Below are positions 26,781-35,172 of a stretch of DNA of 35,846 bases, piece by piece. The DNA is from an uncultured Helicobacter sp. (GTDB lineage Bacteria > Campylobacterota > Campylobacteria > Campylobacterales > Helicobacteraceae): the NCBI GenBank assembly GCA_947177485.1, contig CAMWUR010000021.1, positions 1-35,846 of the forward strand, read 5' to 3'. How positions within the stretch are numbered: the first letter of the stretch is position 1; every line of letters starts with the position of its first letter. The translations under genes and the position numbers were made by a program. The notes beneath the pieces are model-generated. The model saw nothing but the letters and a program-made list of their open reading frames with translations. It ran no database searches and was not told the origin of the DNA.

Positions 26781-27221
26781 ATGGAAAACTATTTGCGAGA
26801 GATTGTTGACTATGGTGTTTTGGGACTTTTGGGGCTTATGAGCGTTGTGTCGCTTGGAATCGTATTCGAACGTTTATTTTTCTATGCCTCGCTTCGCCCT
26901 GAAGTTTTGCAGCTCTACAAGCACAAGAATCACCTTGAGCTCGAGCTTTCGCGCAATCTCACACTTCTTGCGACAATCGCTTCAAACGCGCCTTATGTCG
27001 GGCTTTTGGGCACGGTGTTTGGAATCATGCTCACGTTTGTCGACATTGGCAGCAAGGGCGGTGCGAGCGATGCTCAAACAATCATGGTCGGTTTAGCGCT
27101 TGCGCTCAAGGCGACGGCATTTGGGCTGCTTGTCGCGATTCCTTCGCTTTTTTGCTACAACCTTTTGTTGCGCAAAGGTGAGGTGATTGTGATTCGCTGG
27201 GAGAATTGCCATGAGGCTTAA
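26781..27221 (+). CDS. exbB: ExbB/TolQ-family motor protein
   Basis: ExbB forms the pentameric proton channel that, with ExbD, powers TonB-dependent uptake across the outer membrane. The 146-residue protein is the short form found in Helicobacter. It has three membrane helices: about 10-33, 65-86 (containing APYVGLLGTVFGIMLTF, the family signature) and 100-128 (GLALALKATAFGLLVAIPSL). I chose the ATG at 26781 with AAGG six bases upstream; a reading from 26673 overlaps the microprotein gene in another frame. It overlaps exbD by 11 bases. No tonB follows. Confidence 0.94.
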   Translation: MENYLREIVDYGVLGLLGLMSVVSLGIVFERLFFYASLRPEVLQLYKHKNHLELELSRNLTLLATIASNAPYVGLLGTVFGIMLTFVDIGSKGGASDAQTIMVGLALALKATAFGLLVAIPSLFCYNLLLRKGEVIVIRWENCHEA

Positions 27222-27591
27222 AAAAATCGAGGGAATCAACATTATTCCGTTCATTGACATTATGTTGGTTTTGCTCGTGATTGTGCTTATGGAGGCAACA
27301 TTTGTGCGCACTGATGCGCTCACTTTGCCGCAATCAAGCGCTGATAATGCAGCACCAAGTGGCACGGCAGCCTTGAGTTTTAGCATCACCAAAGACGGGC
27401 AATTGCTCTTTGAAGGGCAAGCGATTGGGTTTGATGAGGTTGCAAGCAAACTCGCAACAATCGATAAAAATGCGCCGATTCATATTCTTGGCGATTCACA
27501 AAGCAGGTTGCAAGAGTTTGTTACATTGCTTGGCATGTTGCAAAATCTGCAGATGAGCAATTTGAGTATCATCACAGAAACAAAACAATAA
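27211..27591 (+). CDS. exbD: ExbD/TolR-family motor protein
   Basis: This is a 126-residue partner of ExbB. It has a short cytoplasmic N-terminus (MRLKKIEGINIIPFIDIMLVLLVIVLM) with one membrane helix and the conserved proton-carrying Asp in FIDIML (D16), then a periplasmic domain ending VTLLGMLQNLQMSNLSIITE. Order and sizes match H. pylori HP1445-HP1446. The start lies within exbB. No TonB-like gene follows; instead a microprotein gene and a ZorA-like gene lie downstream. Confidence 0.94.
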   Translation: MRLKKIEGINIIPFIDIMLVLLVIVLMEATFVRTDALTLPQSSADNAAPSGTAALSFSITKDGQLLFEGQAIGFDEVASKLATIDKNAPIHILGDSQSRLQEFVTLLGMLQNLQMSNLSIITETKQ

Positions 27592-27601
27592 GGAGTTCCT
27601 C

Positions 27602-27787
27602 ATGGGCTTAGGTTTTAGTGGAAATTATCAACTTGAAACAATCATTTCGGCATTTGTAACATTTGGGGTGATTATGCTCACAATCCGTGTCTATCTCAAA
27701 TACGTTGCGCAAAAACGTCCACAAATTCAGCGCCCCGATTGGCTCAAAGAACGCAAACCACGTACATCTAGTCGGCGCAGACGCTAA
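27602..27787 (+). CDS. 61-residue single-pass membrane microprotein after exbD
   Basis: This small frame follows exbD by 10 bases and has a strong AAGGAG ribosome binding site seven bases before the ATG. The protein has a short N-terminus, one hydrophobic helix (about residues 11-31, TIISAFVTFGVIMLTIRVYL) and a strongly basic C-terminal tail ending SSRRRR. I do not recognise a family. Build (helix then basic tail) resembles the 49-residue protein before exbB, although sequence identity is not obvious. It lies six bases before the ZorA-like gene, so it may belong to either motor pair. Confidence 0.75.
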   Translation: MGLGFSGNYQLETIISAFVTFGVIMLTIRVYLKYVAQKRPQIQRPDWLKERKPRTSSRRRR

Positions 27788-27793
27788 GGAAAA

Positions 27794-30181
27794 ATGATGT
27801 TCCCAACCGAATTTGGCTTGATTTTAAACGTGCTCTTTACGCTCATCATGTTTTTTTTAGCATGGCTTGATTGGCGCAGTTTTGGCTCGCAAAACCACAA
27901 AGATTTCAAGTCGGTGATTATGAGCACAGGTGTGCTGGGGACATTTGTTGGAATTTTTGTCGGATTGTTAGGCTTCGACACGACCAAAGTAACAGATTCG
28001 ATTCCGCTCTTGCTCGATGGGCTCAAGGTGGCGTTCTATACCTCGATTGTCGGAATGGGCATTGCGATTGCGCTCAATATCGCCCAAAAGGGACGCAAAA
28101 AAATGTCTACACCAAAGAGTGGGACAGAATATCTCAACGCGCAGCTCCAAAAGCTTGAAATGCTCGAACATCTCGAGGAGCTCAAGAATGTCTCGAGAAT
28201 GCATAATTTTTTGCAAGAAAGTTTTGCTAGACATGAAAAAGCGCGCGAAAGCGAGCAGCGCGCCGAGAACGAGCGCTTTACTGCTACGCAACATCTCTTG
28301 CAACAAGGCTTTGCAGGGATTGAGACAAGCCTTGCAGCAGCGCTCGAAAAGCTTGCTAAAGGCGCGAGTGAGGGGCTTATCGAGGCTCTTGCTGGTGTGA
28401 TTCGTGATTTTAATAAAAACCTAAACGAGCAGTTTGGGCAAAATTTTGTCGAGCTCAACAACGCTGTGGGTGCAATGGTCGTGTGGCAGCGCGATTATCA
28501 GGGGACGCTCGACAAAACCCAAGAATCATTGCGGCAAATGGAACAAAGCTTTGCCCAAAGCGTCAGCGCGATTGAGCAGGTTGCCGCGCGCAATCGCGAG
28601 GTGATGGAGTTCTATGCCGACCTCAAGGAGTTTTTGTCATCATCTCAAGAGAGTGCCGAGCAATTGCGCACGCACCTTAGTGGCATTGCCGCGCTGGGCG
28701 ATGACGCAAGAGAATCATTGCTCAATGTGCGCACACTCTTTGACGAATCGGCACAAAAAATTGGCAACCTTGCGAGCAGTCTGCAGCAGAGTTTCAAAGA
28801 ATCCGAGGACGACCTCGTCCGCCGAATCAAGCAATTTGGTGACAACTCGACAGCGACAATCCAACATCTCACGCAGAATCTCATCACGCATAGCGAGATT
28901 CTCAAAAACCATATCGCGAGCAATAGCGATGCGCTCAAAGAAAGCTTTGTGATGTTTGGCGACAATGTCAAAAACTTTAGCGCAAATCTCAACAGCGAGA
29001 TTATCGGAATCTACCACAACGCAGCGCAGCAGATTCACCAAGACAGCGAGCAATTTGCGCAAACGATGACACAACAAAGCAACGCGATTCAAGGCAAGCT
29101 CGCAACGCTTGCAAGTACAGGCGAGCAAAGCCTCACGCAGCTCCATAGCAAACTGCAAACAGTCGCGGAGCAAAACAGCGCATTACTCGAAGATTCGCTG
29201 CAAAAAAGTCAAAATGTGATGGAACAGCGCAGCCAAAAAATCGAGCAGTTGCTCGGCATGCATAGCGAGCAGCTGCAAAACAATGTGGCGCGCCTCACGG
29301 GCGATGTGATGGGTGCAATCGAGCAGATGAGCAATGAAGTGCGTACTCTAAGCAGCAAAGTGCGTGAGGATATGACACAAACACTACAAGTAATGCGCGA
29401 AGAGATGCTGAAGATGACAAATCTGACGAAAGAGGGCATGACGGCTGGTGCAAACGCGATGGTCAAGCAGAATCGCGTGTTTTTGGAAGGAATTGGCAAC
29501 CAAACTAAGGAATTTTTCACTCAATCGCTCAATGATTGGCAAAAGGAGCAAAAGCAAGCAATCGGTGCGATTTCGCAAAACTTTCAAGCCCTTGTGGGCA
29601 GTCTTGCAGGCAATCTCAAAACACTCAATGACGGACTCAACAGCGGCATTAGCGAGATTAAGGAGAGTTTGCGCAACCTGCTGGGCGATGTTGTGAGCGA
29701 CCTCAAACACGGCGCGGAGGAATACAATAGCGCGTCTCTTGCCGTGCTCGAATCCAACATCGAGCAGATTTCGAGCAAGATTGTCGTCTTGCAAGAAACC
29801 TCGCACCACTCGCTCGAGCGCATTGCGCAGGAATATTTGACGCAGTTCAAGGCGCTCATGAGCGAGAGTGTGAATATCCCCAAAGACGCGAGCATGCAGA
29901 TTCTAAGTGAGATTGAGAATCTCCAAAAAGGCATTGCGGCAAACCTGATTGCGGCAAATCAAAGTATCTTGAACAACAAAGAAGAAGTGCGCGCGATTAT
30001 CGACAATGTGAATGCGCATTTGGAGAATCAACTGACAGAAACGCAGAAAATCAGCAGCAATCTTTACGATTCCTTGCAAGCGCTCGATGGCTCGATGAGC
30101 AAGCTCACTGAAGGTTTCAAGGGCGATTATGAATGGTTCTTGCGCCGAATCAGCGAGTTCATGGGCTCGCATAGGGGCTAG
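27794..30181 (+). CDS. ZorA-like MotA/TolQ/ExbB-family protein with long coiled-coil tail
   Basis: This is a 795-residue protein with three membrane helices near the N-terminus (about 8-26, 42-61 and 76-97). TM2 carries STGVLGTFVGIFVGL and TM3 carries LLLDGLKVAFYTSIVGMGIAI, the pattern of MotA/TolQ/ExbB channels of the ZorA subgroup. From about residue 110 to the end it is a cytoplasmic, Ala/Gln/Ser/Glu-rich, nearly continuous helical or coiled-coil tail, with methyl-accepting-protein-like regularity. In Zorya antiphage systems ZorA and ZorB form a proton-driven motor with a long internal tail. Only the A/B pair occurs here. ATG at 27794 or 27797 (the latter better spaced after AAGGA). Composition matches the housekeeping genes around it. 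Confidence 0.82.
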   Translation: MMFPTEFGLILNVLFTLIMFFLAWLDWRSFGSQNHKDFKSVIMSTGVLGTFVGIFVGLLGFDTTKVTDSIPLLLDGLKVAFYTSIVGMGIAIALNIAQKGRKKMSTPKSGTEYLNAQLQKLEMLEHLEELKNVSRMHNFLQESFARHEKARESEQRAENERFTATQHLLQQGFAGIETSLAAALEKLAKGASEGLIEALAGVIRDFNKNLNEQFGQNFVELNNAVGAMVVWQRDYQGTLDKTQESLRQMEQSFAQSVSAIEQVAARNREVMEFYADLKEFLSSSQESAEQLRTHLSGIAALGDDARESLLNVRTLFDESAQKIGNLASSLQQSFKESEDDLVRRIKQFGDNSTATIQHLTQNLITHSEILKNHIASNSDALKESFVMFGDNVKNFSANLNSEIIGIYHNAAQQIHQDSEQFAQTMTQQSNAIQGKLATLASTGEQSLTQLHSKLQTVAEQNSALLEDSLQKSQNVMEQRSQKIEQLLGMHSEQLQNNVARLTGDVMGAIEQMSNEVRTLSSKVREDMTQTLQVMREEMLKMTNLTKEGMTAGANAMVKQNRVFLEGIGNQTKEFFTQSLNDWQKEQKQAIGAISQNFQALVGSLAGNLKTLNDGLNSGISEIKESLRNLLGDVVSDLKHGAEEYNSASLAVLESNIEQISSKIVVLQETSHHSLERIAQEYLTQFKALMSESVNIPKDASMQILSEIENLQKGIAANLIAANQSILNNKEEVRAIIDNVNAHLENQLTETQKISSNLYDSLQALDGSMSKLTEGFKGDYEWFLRRISEFMGSHRG

Positions 30182-30183
30182 AC

Positions 30184-30942
30184 ATGCAAAGGGATAGCGA
30201 GTGGATTAGCATTTCGGATATGATGGCGGGGCTCATGATGATTTTCCTGCTCATCACGGTCTCGTATATGCTGATTTCAGAGCACAACCAAGAAGAATTG
30301 CGCAAAAGCAACGAGGAATTGCGCGCCGTGAGCGACAAGATGAGCGCGATTGCCGAGGGGTATTATGACATTGAATTCGCACTTTATCATGACCTCATCA
30401 GAGAATTTGGCGATGATTTGAAGATGTGGAATGCCGAGATTGATTCGGGGAACACGATTCGGTTCAAAGAACCTGATGTGCTGTTTGCCACAGGCGAGGG
30501 CGCGATTCAGCAGCGGTTTAAAAAGGTGCTCGATTCGTTTTTTCCGCGCTATATCGCGATTCTCTCGAGCCCGAAATATCGCGAGAGTATCGAGGAGATT
30601 CGCATCGAAGGGCACACATCGAGTGAATGGAAATCCTCGCACGACCTCGTTGAACGTTATCTCGAAAACGCCTCGCTTTCGCAAGCACGGGCATTTTCTG
30701 TATTGCAATATTGCTTCAACCTGCCCGATGTACGTGAGCGCGATTGGCTGATTTCTGTGCTCCGCGCCAACGGCTTATCGTTTGCCAAGCCGCTCGAAAC
30801 AGACGCACTCTCGCGCCGTGTCGAGTTTCGGACGATTACCAAGAGCCGCCAAAAAATCCAAGAGATTTTCAATATCAAAGAAGAATCCACAATCTCTGCC
30901 GAGGTTGCAAGCGAGCTTGAAAAGGCATTGTTGCACGATTAA
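30184..30942 (+). CDS. ZorB-like OmpA/MotB-family motor protein
   Basis: This is a 252-residue protein with one membrane helix (about 13-32) entered by SISDMMAGLMMIFLL. D12 sits where MotB/ZorB carry the ion-binding Asp. A helical linker (33-60) is followed by a periplasmic OmpA/MotB peptidoglycan-binding domain: VLFATGEGAI (99-108), IEGHTSS (141-147), LSQARAFSV (165-173) and SRRVEFRT (210-217). It begins two bases after the ZorA-like stop. Together they should form a peptidoglycan-anchored stator. No ZorC, ZorD, ZorE or nuclease gene follows; copA does. I infer a motor pair of unknown output, related to Zorya A/B. Confidence 0.85.
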   Translation: MQRDSEWISISDMMAGLMMIFLLITVSYMLISEHNQEELRKSNEELRAVSDKMSAIAEGYYDIEFALYHDLIREFGDDLKMWNAEIDSGNTIRFKEPDVLFATGEGAIQQRFKKVLDSFFPRYIAILSSPKYRESIEEIRIEGHTSSEWKSSHDLVERYLENASLSQARAFSVLQYCFNLPDVRERDWLISVLRANGLSFAKPLETDALSRRVEFRTITKSRQKIQEIFNIKEESTISAEVASELEKALLHD

Positions 30943-33374: not shown

Positions 33375-33583
33375 ATGAATCTTTGCGTATTGTCGTAATT
33401 GCTGTGGCTTTGGCGCACAGGCGATTTGCAAGACATCAAGCGAGAGAGCAAGCAAGATAGAACTTGTGCCATTGTTTCTCGCGTTGGGCGGTTGCGCCCC
33501 TAGTTTGCCATGTGATGTTGCGATTGAGAATCGCCGCTTTGCTCATGGCATGTTTGGTTTGTATTTTGCCATTAGGAGCGAGA
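33375..33583 (+). other. Long leader or gene remnant before the ATPase gene
   Basis: About 209 bases lie between the promoter and the ATPase start. They contain a GGGCG-GTTG-CGCCC hairpin (33486-33499) without a U-run, and from an ATG at 33515 a signal-peptide-like reading (MLRLRIAALLMACLVCILPL) that runs in frame into the ATPase but has no ribosome binding site. It could be the 5' stub of a lost secreted-protein gene, or an untranslated leader. Confidence 0.45.
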
Positions 33584-34612
33584 GTGGAGAAGGGCAGTAT
33601 TGTTCTGACACTTGAAAATATAGGAATGCTGAAGAAAGCGCAGGTTGACATCGGCGGCTTGAGCGTCATCGCTGGCGAGAATGACGAGGGCAAGAGCACC
33701 GTTGGCAAGGCGCTGATGGCTTTGATTAAAGCAGAAAATACTTTTGTAGAGAAAACATCTCCTAAACATGCCAAACAATCTTTTAATCGTTTGATTGATT
33801 TGCTTTTTGATAATCAAATGACTGAAAAGGGTTATTTGAATCTTGAAGTCAATAGGGATGAATTTTATAAAGTAACAATTGTAGAAAATGAATGTATTAG
33901 CTTTGATAGAGGATTCAGTAGCAGATTTTCTGATTGTACTTTTGTACCAAGTCCTTTGATTTGGGATTTATATAACTTTTTTTCGTCTGTTGCGGTATTA
34001 GAGGTTGAAAATAGGTTTTATCAAAGCAATCAAAATGAATTTGACTTTAAATATCCTTATATTCTGTGGGATTTATATAGAAAAATATCCATAGAACGTC
34101 CATGTTTGATAAGAGGAAGCATTCAAGAAATCAAAGAGTATGTTCAAGAAATTATGAGTGGTTTTTTTATTAAGAAACAAGGTAAATACGTATTCTACAA
34201 ACCCGAATCAGACTTTCAAGTGTCAATAATGAATACAGCAACAGGAATTAAAAGTTTTGGCATATTACAAATGTTGATTCAAAATGATTATATGACCGAA
34301 AACAGCTTTACTATCTTCGATGAACCCGAAAATCATCTCCACGCCACATGGCAGGTGAAGTTTGCCGAGATTCTTGCGCGACTTGTGCAAAACCACGTTT
34401 GCATTATGGTGAATACGCATAGCCCCTATATGCTCGAAGCGTTGCATAAATATGGAAAAAAGTACGCAATTAATACAAATTTCTATTTGGCAGATAGTGG
34501 CAAAGTTGAGCAAATCGATAATGACAATAGTGCGACTTTGGAAAAGATATATAAAAAACTGAATCAGTCTTTTATCTCTTTGGACGAAATATTAGATGAA
34601 GAAGAGGAATAG
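33584..34612 (+). CDS. AAA/ABC-type ATPase (AAA_15/AAA_21-like), possible defence ATPase
   Basis: This is a 342-residue cytoplasmic ATPase of the SMC/OLD/RecF-like kind. Motifs: an N-terminal strand pair (LTLENIGMLKKAQVDI), Walker A GENDEGKST (31-39), a signature-like TGIKSFGI (220-227), Walker B FTIFDEPEN (242-250) with D246/E247, and the NTHSPYML switch (277-284). Length is short because the coiled-coil or insert part between Walker A and B is only about 200 residues. The GTG at 33584 has AGGAG five bases upstream. Walker A and Walker B/H-loop coding stretches are GC-rich, while the segment between (about 33720-34310) is AT-rich, suggesting a mosaic. It lies five bases before a gene with a PD-(D/E)XK-like motif; OLD- or Septu-type pairing is inference. 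Confidence 0.8.
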   Translation: MEKGSIVLTLENIGMLKKAQVDIGGLSVIAGENDEGKSTVGKALMALIKAENTFVEKTSPKHAKQSFNRLIDLLFDNQMTEKGYLNLEVNRDEFYKVTIVENECISFDRGFSSRFSDCTFVPSPLIWDLYNFFSSVAVLEVENRFYQSNQNEFDFKYPYILWDLYRKISIERPCLIRGSIQEIKEYVQEIMSGFFIKKQGKYVFYKPESDFQVSIMNTATGIKSFGILQMLIQNDYMTENSFTIFDEPENHLHATWQVKFAEILARLVQNHVCIMVNTHSPYMLEALHKYGKKYAINTNFYLADSGKVEQIDNDNSATLEKIYKKLNQSFISLDEILDEEEE

Positions 34613-34617
34613 AAAAC

Positions 34618-35172
34618 ATGGCTGATTTAGGTGTTTTGAAGGGAATTTTTGAACCCTATGAATCGACTTTGCAGGACACAAGCTATGATTTAACAAACAA
34701 AAAATATCTCTGCCAAAGCCAAGAAAGAGTCATTAATTTTGACAAATACACACAAACAAAAGCGCAAAAATCAAAATGTAAAGCCAACAAATCTTTTGAC
34801 ACGCTGTATTTTCACCATGAAACTTCTAGCGTCTATTGTGTCGAGTTTAAGAATCAAAAATATAGCGACATTGATAGCGATGATATTAGGGAAAAATTTA
34901 TATATGGAATTGCTCAATTAAGAGAAATTTTTATCTCTCAAAATATTAATACAGATAATTTTACTTTTAATCTCTTTGTTGTCTTTAAGAATCCACGAGA
35001 AACAAGAGCCTTTCACACAAGGTTTGTAGAAACAGAGACTTTTTTTGGTTTAGATACGAAAAAATTTAAAGAAAGCCTAGCAAAAATTAAATCTCTCAAA
35101 ATAAAAACAGGCTATGGGGCTCAATTTGGGAAAATCTACAAAAAGCTATTCCACAATGAAAGCAATTGCTAA
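34618..35172 (+). CDS. Unknown protein with PD-(D/E)XK-like nuclease motif
   Basis: This is a 184-residue cytoplasmic protein, AT-rich in coding sequence. D61 (KSFDTLYF) and E76-x-K78 (VYCVEFKNQ), 14 residues apart on two predicted strands, fit the D-(x)n-ExK pattern of restriction-endonuclease-like nucleases; a helix with Q100 (GIAQLREIF) and a further strand (FNLFVVF) follow, as in that fold. No signal peptide or membrane segment is present. The ATG has AGAGGA upstream overlapping the ATPase end, five bases after its stop, so the two are one operon. The pairing recalls ATPase-plus-nuclease defence systems. I could not match it to a named family; the nuclease call is by motif only. Confidence 0.65.
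   Translation: MADLGVLKGIFEPYESTLQDTSYDLTNKKYLCQSQERVINFDKYTQTKAQKSKCKANKSFDTLYFHHETSSVYCVEFKNQKYSDIDSDDIREKFIYGIAQLREIFISQNINTDNFTFNLFVVFKNPRETRAFHTRFVETETFFGLDTKKFKESLAKIKSLKIKTGYGAQFGKIYKKLFHNESNC

What the first reader, a model, noticed from the sequence alone, without database searches (positions are those of the whole stretch)
27794..30942. ZorA/ZorB-like motor pair without the other Zorya genes, in a housekeeping neighbourhood
The ZorA-like protein (three helices then a tail of nearly 700 coiled residues) and ZorB-like protein (D12 in the helix, OmpA domain) form the stator known from Zorya antiphage systems, but no ZorC, D, E, F or G follows. The pair has the base composition of its neighbours and sits between exbBD and copA, not in a defence island. 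It may be a vertically inherited ion-driven motor transmitting a signal from peptidoglycan to a cytoplasmic effector encoded elsewhere, or an ancestor-type module of Zorya.
Basis: partly seen in the sequence, partly recalled or inferred. Interest (0 to 1): 0.8.

Follow-up and report, generated by a model that had tools for sequence, protein, structure and literature searches.

The report
Domesticated Zorya-II motor with split partner
Many Helicobacter relatives carry, as an ordinary inherited gene pair, the ion-driven motor of the Zorya II anti-phage system; its DNA-cutting partner is gone, and a nuclease-less relative of that partner, encoded at another locus, occurs almost only in genomes that have the motor gene.

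Summary
A ZorA2-like protein (795 aa, three TM helices, ~690-residue helical tail) and a ZorB2-like protein (252 aa, Asp12, OmpA-type domain) follow exbB-exbD, with no zor partner nearby.

New here:
1. The pair sits at one ancestral site (smpB-exbB-exbD-[zorAB]-rpmH-rnpA-yidC), empty in Helicobacteraceae genera that lack it. Its ZorB is one clade (100/99), nested among ZorE-bearing Zorya II.
2. A ZorE homologue (hhalign E 2e-15) without HNH catalytic histidines is encoded elsewhere, usually right after gmhA. It is in 56 of 58 genomes with this ZorA and in none of 63 without it, apart from one true ZorE and one marginal hit. In 399 genomes of the order it occurs only in ZorA-bearing genomes. 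True ZorE is in 3 of 121 family genomes, always next to a divergent ZorAB.
3. Two species lost ZorB and mutated ZorA's pore residues (T50V, S84L), yet keep ZorA's tail tip and the ZorE-like protein.

Caveat: co-occurrence rests on about 1-3 independent changes. Binding and function are untested. Most likely a domesticated, non-nucleolytic Zorya II acting in envelope signalling.

The parts
27794..30181 (+). ZorA-like subunit, 795 aa
   Evidence: PADLOC ZorA2 E 9e-56; 8VVI chain F E 2e-22
27794..28096 (+). ZorA motor part: three predicted TM helices, residues 1-101
   Evidence: model helices 7-29, 39-59, 66-101, pLDDT mostly 77-91
27941..27943 (+). Thr50 codon of ZorA, pore polar ring
   Evidence: invariant in 22 orphan and 15 ZorE-linked ZorA; Val in both ZorB-less ZorA
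28043..28045 (+). Ser84 codon of ZorA, pore polar ring
   Evidence: invariant in 22 orphan and 15 ZorE-linked ZorA; Leu in both ZorB-less ZorA
28346..28543 (+). proximal tail block of ZorA (residues 185-250), shared with Zorya II ZorA
   Evidence: F206, N217, F218, N222, W231, Q232 conserved across orphan and ZorE-linked ZorA
30056..30178 (+). ZorA C-terminal tip (residues 755-795, ...FxxDYEWFLRRIxxxxG)
   Evidence: found in 58 of 121 family genomes, one strong hit each, E 1e-17 to 1e-21; kept in ZorB-less species
30184..30942 (+). ZorB-like subunit, 252 aa, N-terminal TM helix plus OmpA-like domain
   Evidence: PADLOC ZorB2 E 2e-75; 8VVI E 3e-39; Pfam OmpA above cut-off
30217..30219 (+). Asp12 codon of ZorB, ion-carrying aspartate
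   Evidence: invariant in 20 aligned ZorB
30481..30840 (+). OmpA-like peptidoglycan-binding region of ZorB, with H144, S146, R212
   Evidence: H144, S146 and R212 invariant; peptidoglycan residues tested in Zorya II are in PMC11890865
27602..27787 (+). 61-aa single-TM protein between exbD and zorA; membership uncertain
   Evidence: conserved between exbD and ZorA in genera g1, g3, g4, g8; not seen there in g10 or g13
26781..27221 (+). exbB (TonB-system type 2), upstream neighbour, probably not a part
   Evidence: TIGR02805 above cut-off; at the same site in ZorA-lacking genomes too, so adjacency alone is ancestral gene order
27211..27591 (+). exbD, upstream neighbour, probably not a part
   Evidence: Pfam ExbD E 6e-17; same site in ZorA-lacking genomes

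Best explanation
This is the motor half of a domesticated, split Zorya II system. ZorA5B2 would be an ion-driven rotary complex held to peptidoglycan by ZorB, with a rod of five ZorA tails reaching into the cytoplasm. The rod's conserved tip docks a small zinc-binding protein descended from ZorE, encoded at another locus (in this genome right after gmhA), that has lost the HNH nuclease. Envelope disturbance would gate ion flow and turn or reshape the rod, recruiting or releasing the ZorE-like protein at the membrane, as ZorAB recruits ZorE in Zorya II, but with a non-nucleolytic output. Shown: homology and architecture, site orthology, vertical inheritance, absence of ZorE, existence and distribution of the nuclease-less homologue, retention of tip and homologue after motor loss. 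Inferred: 5:2 assembly, tip-partner binding, the trigger, and the output.
For: Strong ZorA2/ZorB2 and 8VVI matches. Ion-pathway and peptidoglycan-site residues invariant. Fixed site and empty site. ZorB forms one clade, 100/99. True ZorE in only 3 of 121 family genomes, each beside a divergent ZorAB with 42-47% identical ZorB. Nuclease-less ZorE homologue: hhalign prob 98.5, E 2e-15, and 98.8, E 1e-16 with more rows; single-sequence ZorE2 hits to 2e-7; zinc ligands H75, C79, C126, C129 invariant. It is in 56 of 58 ZorA-tip genomes, including genera where it left the gmhA locus and species that lost ZorB. Order-wide it occurs only in ZorA-bearing genomes, including another family where it again follows gmhA. 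Two genomes with unlinked ZorA and ZorB still keep both. ZorAB directs ZorE to the membrane in Zorya II: PMC11890865.
Against: On a marker tree the ZorA presence pattern needs only about 3 changes, so the co-occurrence has 1-3 independent contrasts and no statistical weight beyond that. G123 keeps ZorA and ZorB but shows no ZorE-like protein. The ZorE-like protein diverges strongly (15-30% identity between genera). No binding, expression or phenotype data. The tail model is low confidence. A signalling role rather than defence is inference.
Confidence: 0.6

Rival explanations
1. It is still an anti-phage system: a split Zorya II whose ZorE-like protein, brought to the site of phage DNA entry, blocks the DNA by binding it or by calling in a host nuclease, without cutting it itself.
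For: ZorAB and ZorE relatives are kept together; Zorya II recruits ZorE to the membrane on infection (PMC11890865).
Against: Fixed housekeeping site, genus-wide presence, normal GC and vertical inheritance are unlike the patchy Zorya II copies in the same family; the catalytic histidines are lost.
Confidence: 0.22
2. ZorAB works without the ZorE-like protein; the shared distribution is a by-product of vertical inheritance of two old genes lost together once or twice.
For: Only about 1-3 independent changes on the tree; the two loci are unlinked; G123 lacks the ZorE-like gene.
Against: The co-occurring gene is not arbitrary: it is a homologue of the known partner of this motor subtype, and in one genome of a related family a nuclease-less form sits right after ZorB.
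Confidence: 0.13
3. ZorAB works with the adjacent ExbB-ExbD and the 61-aa membrane protein as a Ton- or Tol-like energiser.
For: exbB-exbD lies directly upstream in most genera that have the pair; the 61-aa ORF sits between in four.
Against: exbBD is at the same place in genera without ZorAB, and in genus g6 ZorAB is not next to exbBD.
Confidence: 0.05

Closest known systems
Zorya type II (ZorA2-ZorB2-ZorE)
   Same: Motor subunits, pore and peptidoglycan residues, proximal tail block, the FxxDY part of the tail tip, and the ZorE N-terminal zinc domain
   Different: No ZorE HNH nuclease; partner encoded at another locus; ZorA of 603-1228 aa against mostly 331-501 aa in the ZorE-linked loci read here; fixed chromosomal site and vertical inheritance; scores far below NCBIfam ZorA2 and ZorB2 cut-offs (127 of 700, 160 of 400)
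S. kujiense type II ZorAB structure 8VVI (PMC11890865)
   Same: Best sequence match for both subunits and best fold match for ZorB
   Different: 378-aa ZorA with a much shorter tail
MotAB, TolQR, ExbBD
   Same: 5:2 ion-motor superfamily; MotB-like TM Asp and OmpA-like domain
   Different: Pfam MotA_ExbB hit is below its cut-off (15.2 of 22.9); no MotB, TolR or ExbD equivalog call

Membership tests
Zorya type II | ZorA: MotA/ExbB-like core plus long cytoplasmic tail | tested here: met
Zorya type II | ZorB: TM aspartate and peptidoglycan-binding OmpA-like domain | tested here: met
   (binding itself not tested)
Zorya type II | zorE encoded next to zorAB | tested here: not met
   No ZorE in this genome by the PADLOC model; in 121 family genomes true ZorE is only beside divergent ZorAB copies
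Zorya type II | HNH nuclease effector with catalytic histidines | tested here: not met
   The ZorE homologue elsewhere lacks the HNH region or keeps only its cysteines
Zorya type II | Curated NCBIfam ZorA2 and ZorB2 equivalog thresholds | tested here: not met
   127 against 700 bits; 160 against 400 bits
Zorya type II | Patchy, mobile or defence-island distribution | tested here: not met
   Genus-wide presence at one ancestral site
Zorya type II | Anti-phage activity | not testable with these tools
   Needs an assay
MotAB / TolQR / ExbBD | Best match to one of these families | tested here: not met
   Zorya ZorAB ranks first in the profile, sequence and fold searches
5:2 rotary ion motor | A5B2 assembly and ion flow | not testable with these tools
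   Inferred from homology to 8VVI and conserved pore residues

The most novel reading that the evidence does not exclude
Probability: 0.45. Interest if true: 0.88.

Novelty: new variant of a known kind. Interest (0 to 1): 0.77.

Why it matters
Defence genes are often supposed to be recruited for cell functions, but vertically inherited cases with the lost effector, the retained partner and the empty site all visible are few. This one isolates what the ZorAB motor and the ZorE N-domain do apart from DNA nicking, offers natural motor-dead ZorA variants, and points to the ZorA tail tip and the ZorE zinc domain as the likely docking pair in Zorya II itself. The open question of what the ZorA tail transmits becomes testable in culturable species.

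Tried and rejected
Ancestor-type module: disfavoured by tree position. Functional link to exbBD by adjacency: weakened by the empty site and by genus g6. Decaying remnant: rejected, since frames are open and key residues and the tip conserved across 58 genomes. Plasmid copies: none found. Phylogeny-corrected test of co-occurrence: too few independent changes to be informative. Microbulbifer ZorAB followed by a 341-363 aa protein: only a weak, inconclusive ZorE resemblance. Literature: no held paper describes Zorya in Helicobacter or orphan ZorAB; subscription papers are not held, and the Nature paper on Zorya (10.1038/s41586-024-08493-8) was not available. Two region requests failed on length limits and were repeated.

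Full report
OBSERVATION. The two ORFs are real and lie at the stated coordinates. ZorA-like: 795 aa, PADLOC ZorA2 E 9e-56. ZorB-like: 252 aa, ZorB2 E 2e-75. As a control, the ZorA2 models give the neighbouring ExbB only E 0.007. The closest solved structure for both subunits is the type II ZorAB complex of Sulfuricurvum kujiense, 8VVI; a model of ZorB (mean pLDDT 83) also finds 8VVI first by fold. NCBIfam equivalog cut-offs for ZorA2 and ZorB2 are missed by a wide margin. GC matches the flanking housekeeping genes.

DISTRIBUTION. In 121 genomes of the family, a 38-residue profile of the ZorA C-terminal tip hits 58 genomes with one strong match each (plus one weak extra match in G114): all adequately complete members of genera g1, g3, g4, g6, g8, g10 and g13, and none of g2, g5, g7, g9, g11 and g12. 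ZorB follows the same pattern except in two g3 genomes (G006, G018), where a ZorB profile finds nothing at E 0.1.

SITE. In g4, g8 and most others the order is csrA-ispE-smpB-exbB-exbD-zorA-zorB, and in g10 and g13 it continues with rpmH-rnpA-yidD-yidC (gene names of the last group partly by eye). In ZorA-lacking g2, g7, g9 and g12, exbD is followed by rnpA-yidD-yidC with no room for the pair (rpmH was read in the occupied loci). That is an empty site. In two genomes ZorA and ZorB have been separated onto different contigs and both are kept (G141, G030).

TREE. ZorB from the orphan loci forms one branch, 100/99, distinct from ZorE-linked ZorB; with the type I-like sequence L058 as outgroup it is nested among ZorE-linked Zorya II and next to short-tailed ZorAB of family f23. 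The root is not inferred by the method. True ZorE occurs in 3 of 121 family genomes (G029, G114, G131), each adjacent to a divergent ZorAB; G029 and G114 also carry the orphan pair. So the two kinds coexist and are separable.

THE MISSING PARTNER. Two weak ZorE hits in orphan genomes were both small ORFs right after gmhA. Reading gmhA loci showed such an ORF in most ZorA-bearing genomes read and in none of the ZorA-lacking ones. A profile of 16 members is homologous to ZorE by hhalign, prob 98.5, E 1.8e-15, and 98.8, E 1e-16 with 22 members; one row of the 22 was hand-trimmed and not exact at its start. Members scanned singly hit PADLOC ZorE2 models down to E 2e-7. The ligand pattern H-x3-C...C-x2-C of the ZorE N-domain is invariant. 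The HNH part is absent (144-165 aa forms) or reduced to cysteine pairs without the histidines (209-217 aa forms). In this genome the gene is at G000:C2:2599-3228 (minus), just after gmhA.

CO-OCCURRENCE. The profile hits 58 of 121 family genomes: 56 of the 58 tip genomes; exceptions are G097 (67% complete) and G123 (whose only gmhA hit lies in another sugar cluster). The two hits outside are the true ZorE of G131 and a marginal 31-residue frame in G012, E 0.0097. Across 399 genomes of the order, 26 hit and all bear ZorA; they include G036 of another family, where the gene again follows hldE-gmhA while ZorAB is on another contig, and f23 genomes with 173-176 aa forms, as well as a few true ZorE. 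In g6 and part of g4 the gene has moved away from gmhA yet is kept. The raw Fisher p of 2e-29 must not be read as independent evidence: on a five-marker tree, ZorA presence needs about 3 changes, and only 1-3 independent contrasts exist (G002, G123 and G036 are poorly placed there). The link leans on homology to the known partner of this motor subtype as much as on distribution.

NATURAL SEPARATION OF FUNCTION. In the two ZorB-less species, ZorA residues T50 and S84, invariant in 22 orphan and 15 ZorE-linked ZorA, are Val and Leu; tip residues F775, Y779, W781, F782, L783 and G791 are kept, and the ZorE-like gene is kept after gmhA. This suggests that the rod tip and the ZorE-like protein share a role that can outlast ion-driven motion.

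MECHANISM. In Zorya II, ZorAB forms a 5:2 motor with a cytoplasmic rod, peptidoglycan binding and ion flow are required, and ZorE, a nickase, moves to the membrane on infection in a ZorAB-dependent way (PMC11890865). By homology, the present system would sense the envelope and recruit or release the ZorE-like protein, with an output other than nicking. Its frequent place beside hldE-gmhA could hint at lipopolysaccharide heptose metabolism, but relocation in g6 and part of g4 argues against reading much into that.

LIMITS. Nothing here shows binding, motion, expression or phenotype. The effector's output is unknown. The genome searches used one genome per species and a sample of the order.

Noticed in passing
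window 33464-35172: Two adjacent genes of low GC (36.6% and 31.2%, against ~49% around): an AAA_15/AAA_21 ATPase hitting PADLOC HEC-02A (E 4e-27) and a 184-aa ORF without family hits; looks like a recent foreign, possibly defence-related, insertion.
   Followed up: partly
window 27602-27787 and relatives (L029, L030, L031, L033, L035, L126, L181, L182): A 53-62 aa single-TM protein with a conserved K/RPDW motif between exbD and zorA, not seen at the empty site; possible extra subunit.
   Followed up: partly
L059-L062 (Microbulbifer): ZorAB followed by a 341-363 aa protein with two cysteine pairs, no PADLOC hit in the one scanned, and only weakly ZorE-like; preceded by two other conserved genes. 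Possible undescribed Zorya subtype.
   Followed up: partly
L039, L042, L128, L129, L143, L146-L148, L150 (genus g6): ZorA of 1165-1228 aa; tail length is near constant within a genus and very different between genera (603-1228 aa).
   Followed up: no
L181, L182 (G006, G018): ZorA without any ZorB found in the genome, pore residues degenerated but tip kept.
   Followed up: yes
L058 (Bacteroidales MAG): ZorAB with ZorC-like and ZorD neighbours whose ZorA and ZorB are of type II-like length.
   Followed up: no
L273, L274 (G007, G111): In part of genus g4 the ZorE-like gene lies after two small ORFs that look (by eye) like flagellar-chaperone-type proteins, not after gmhA.
   Followed up: no
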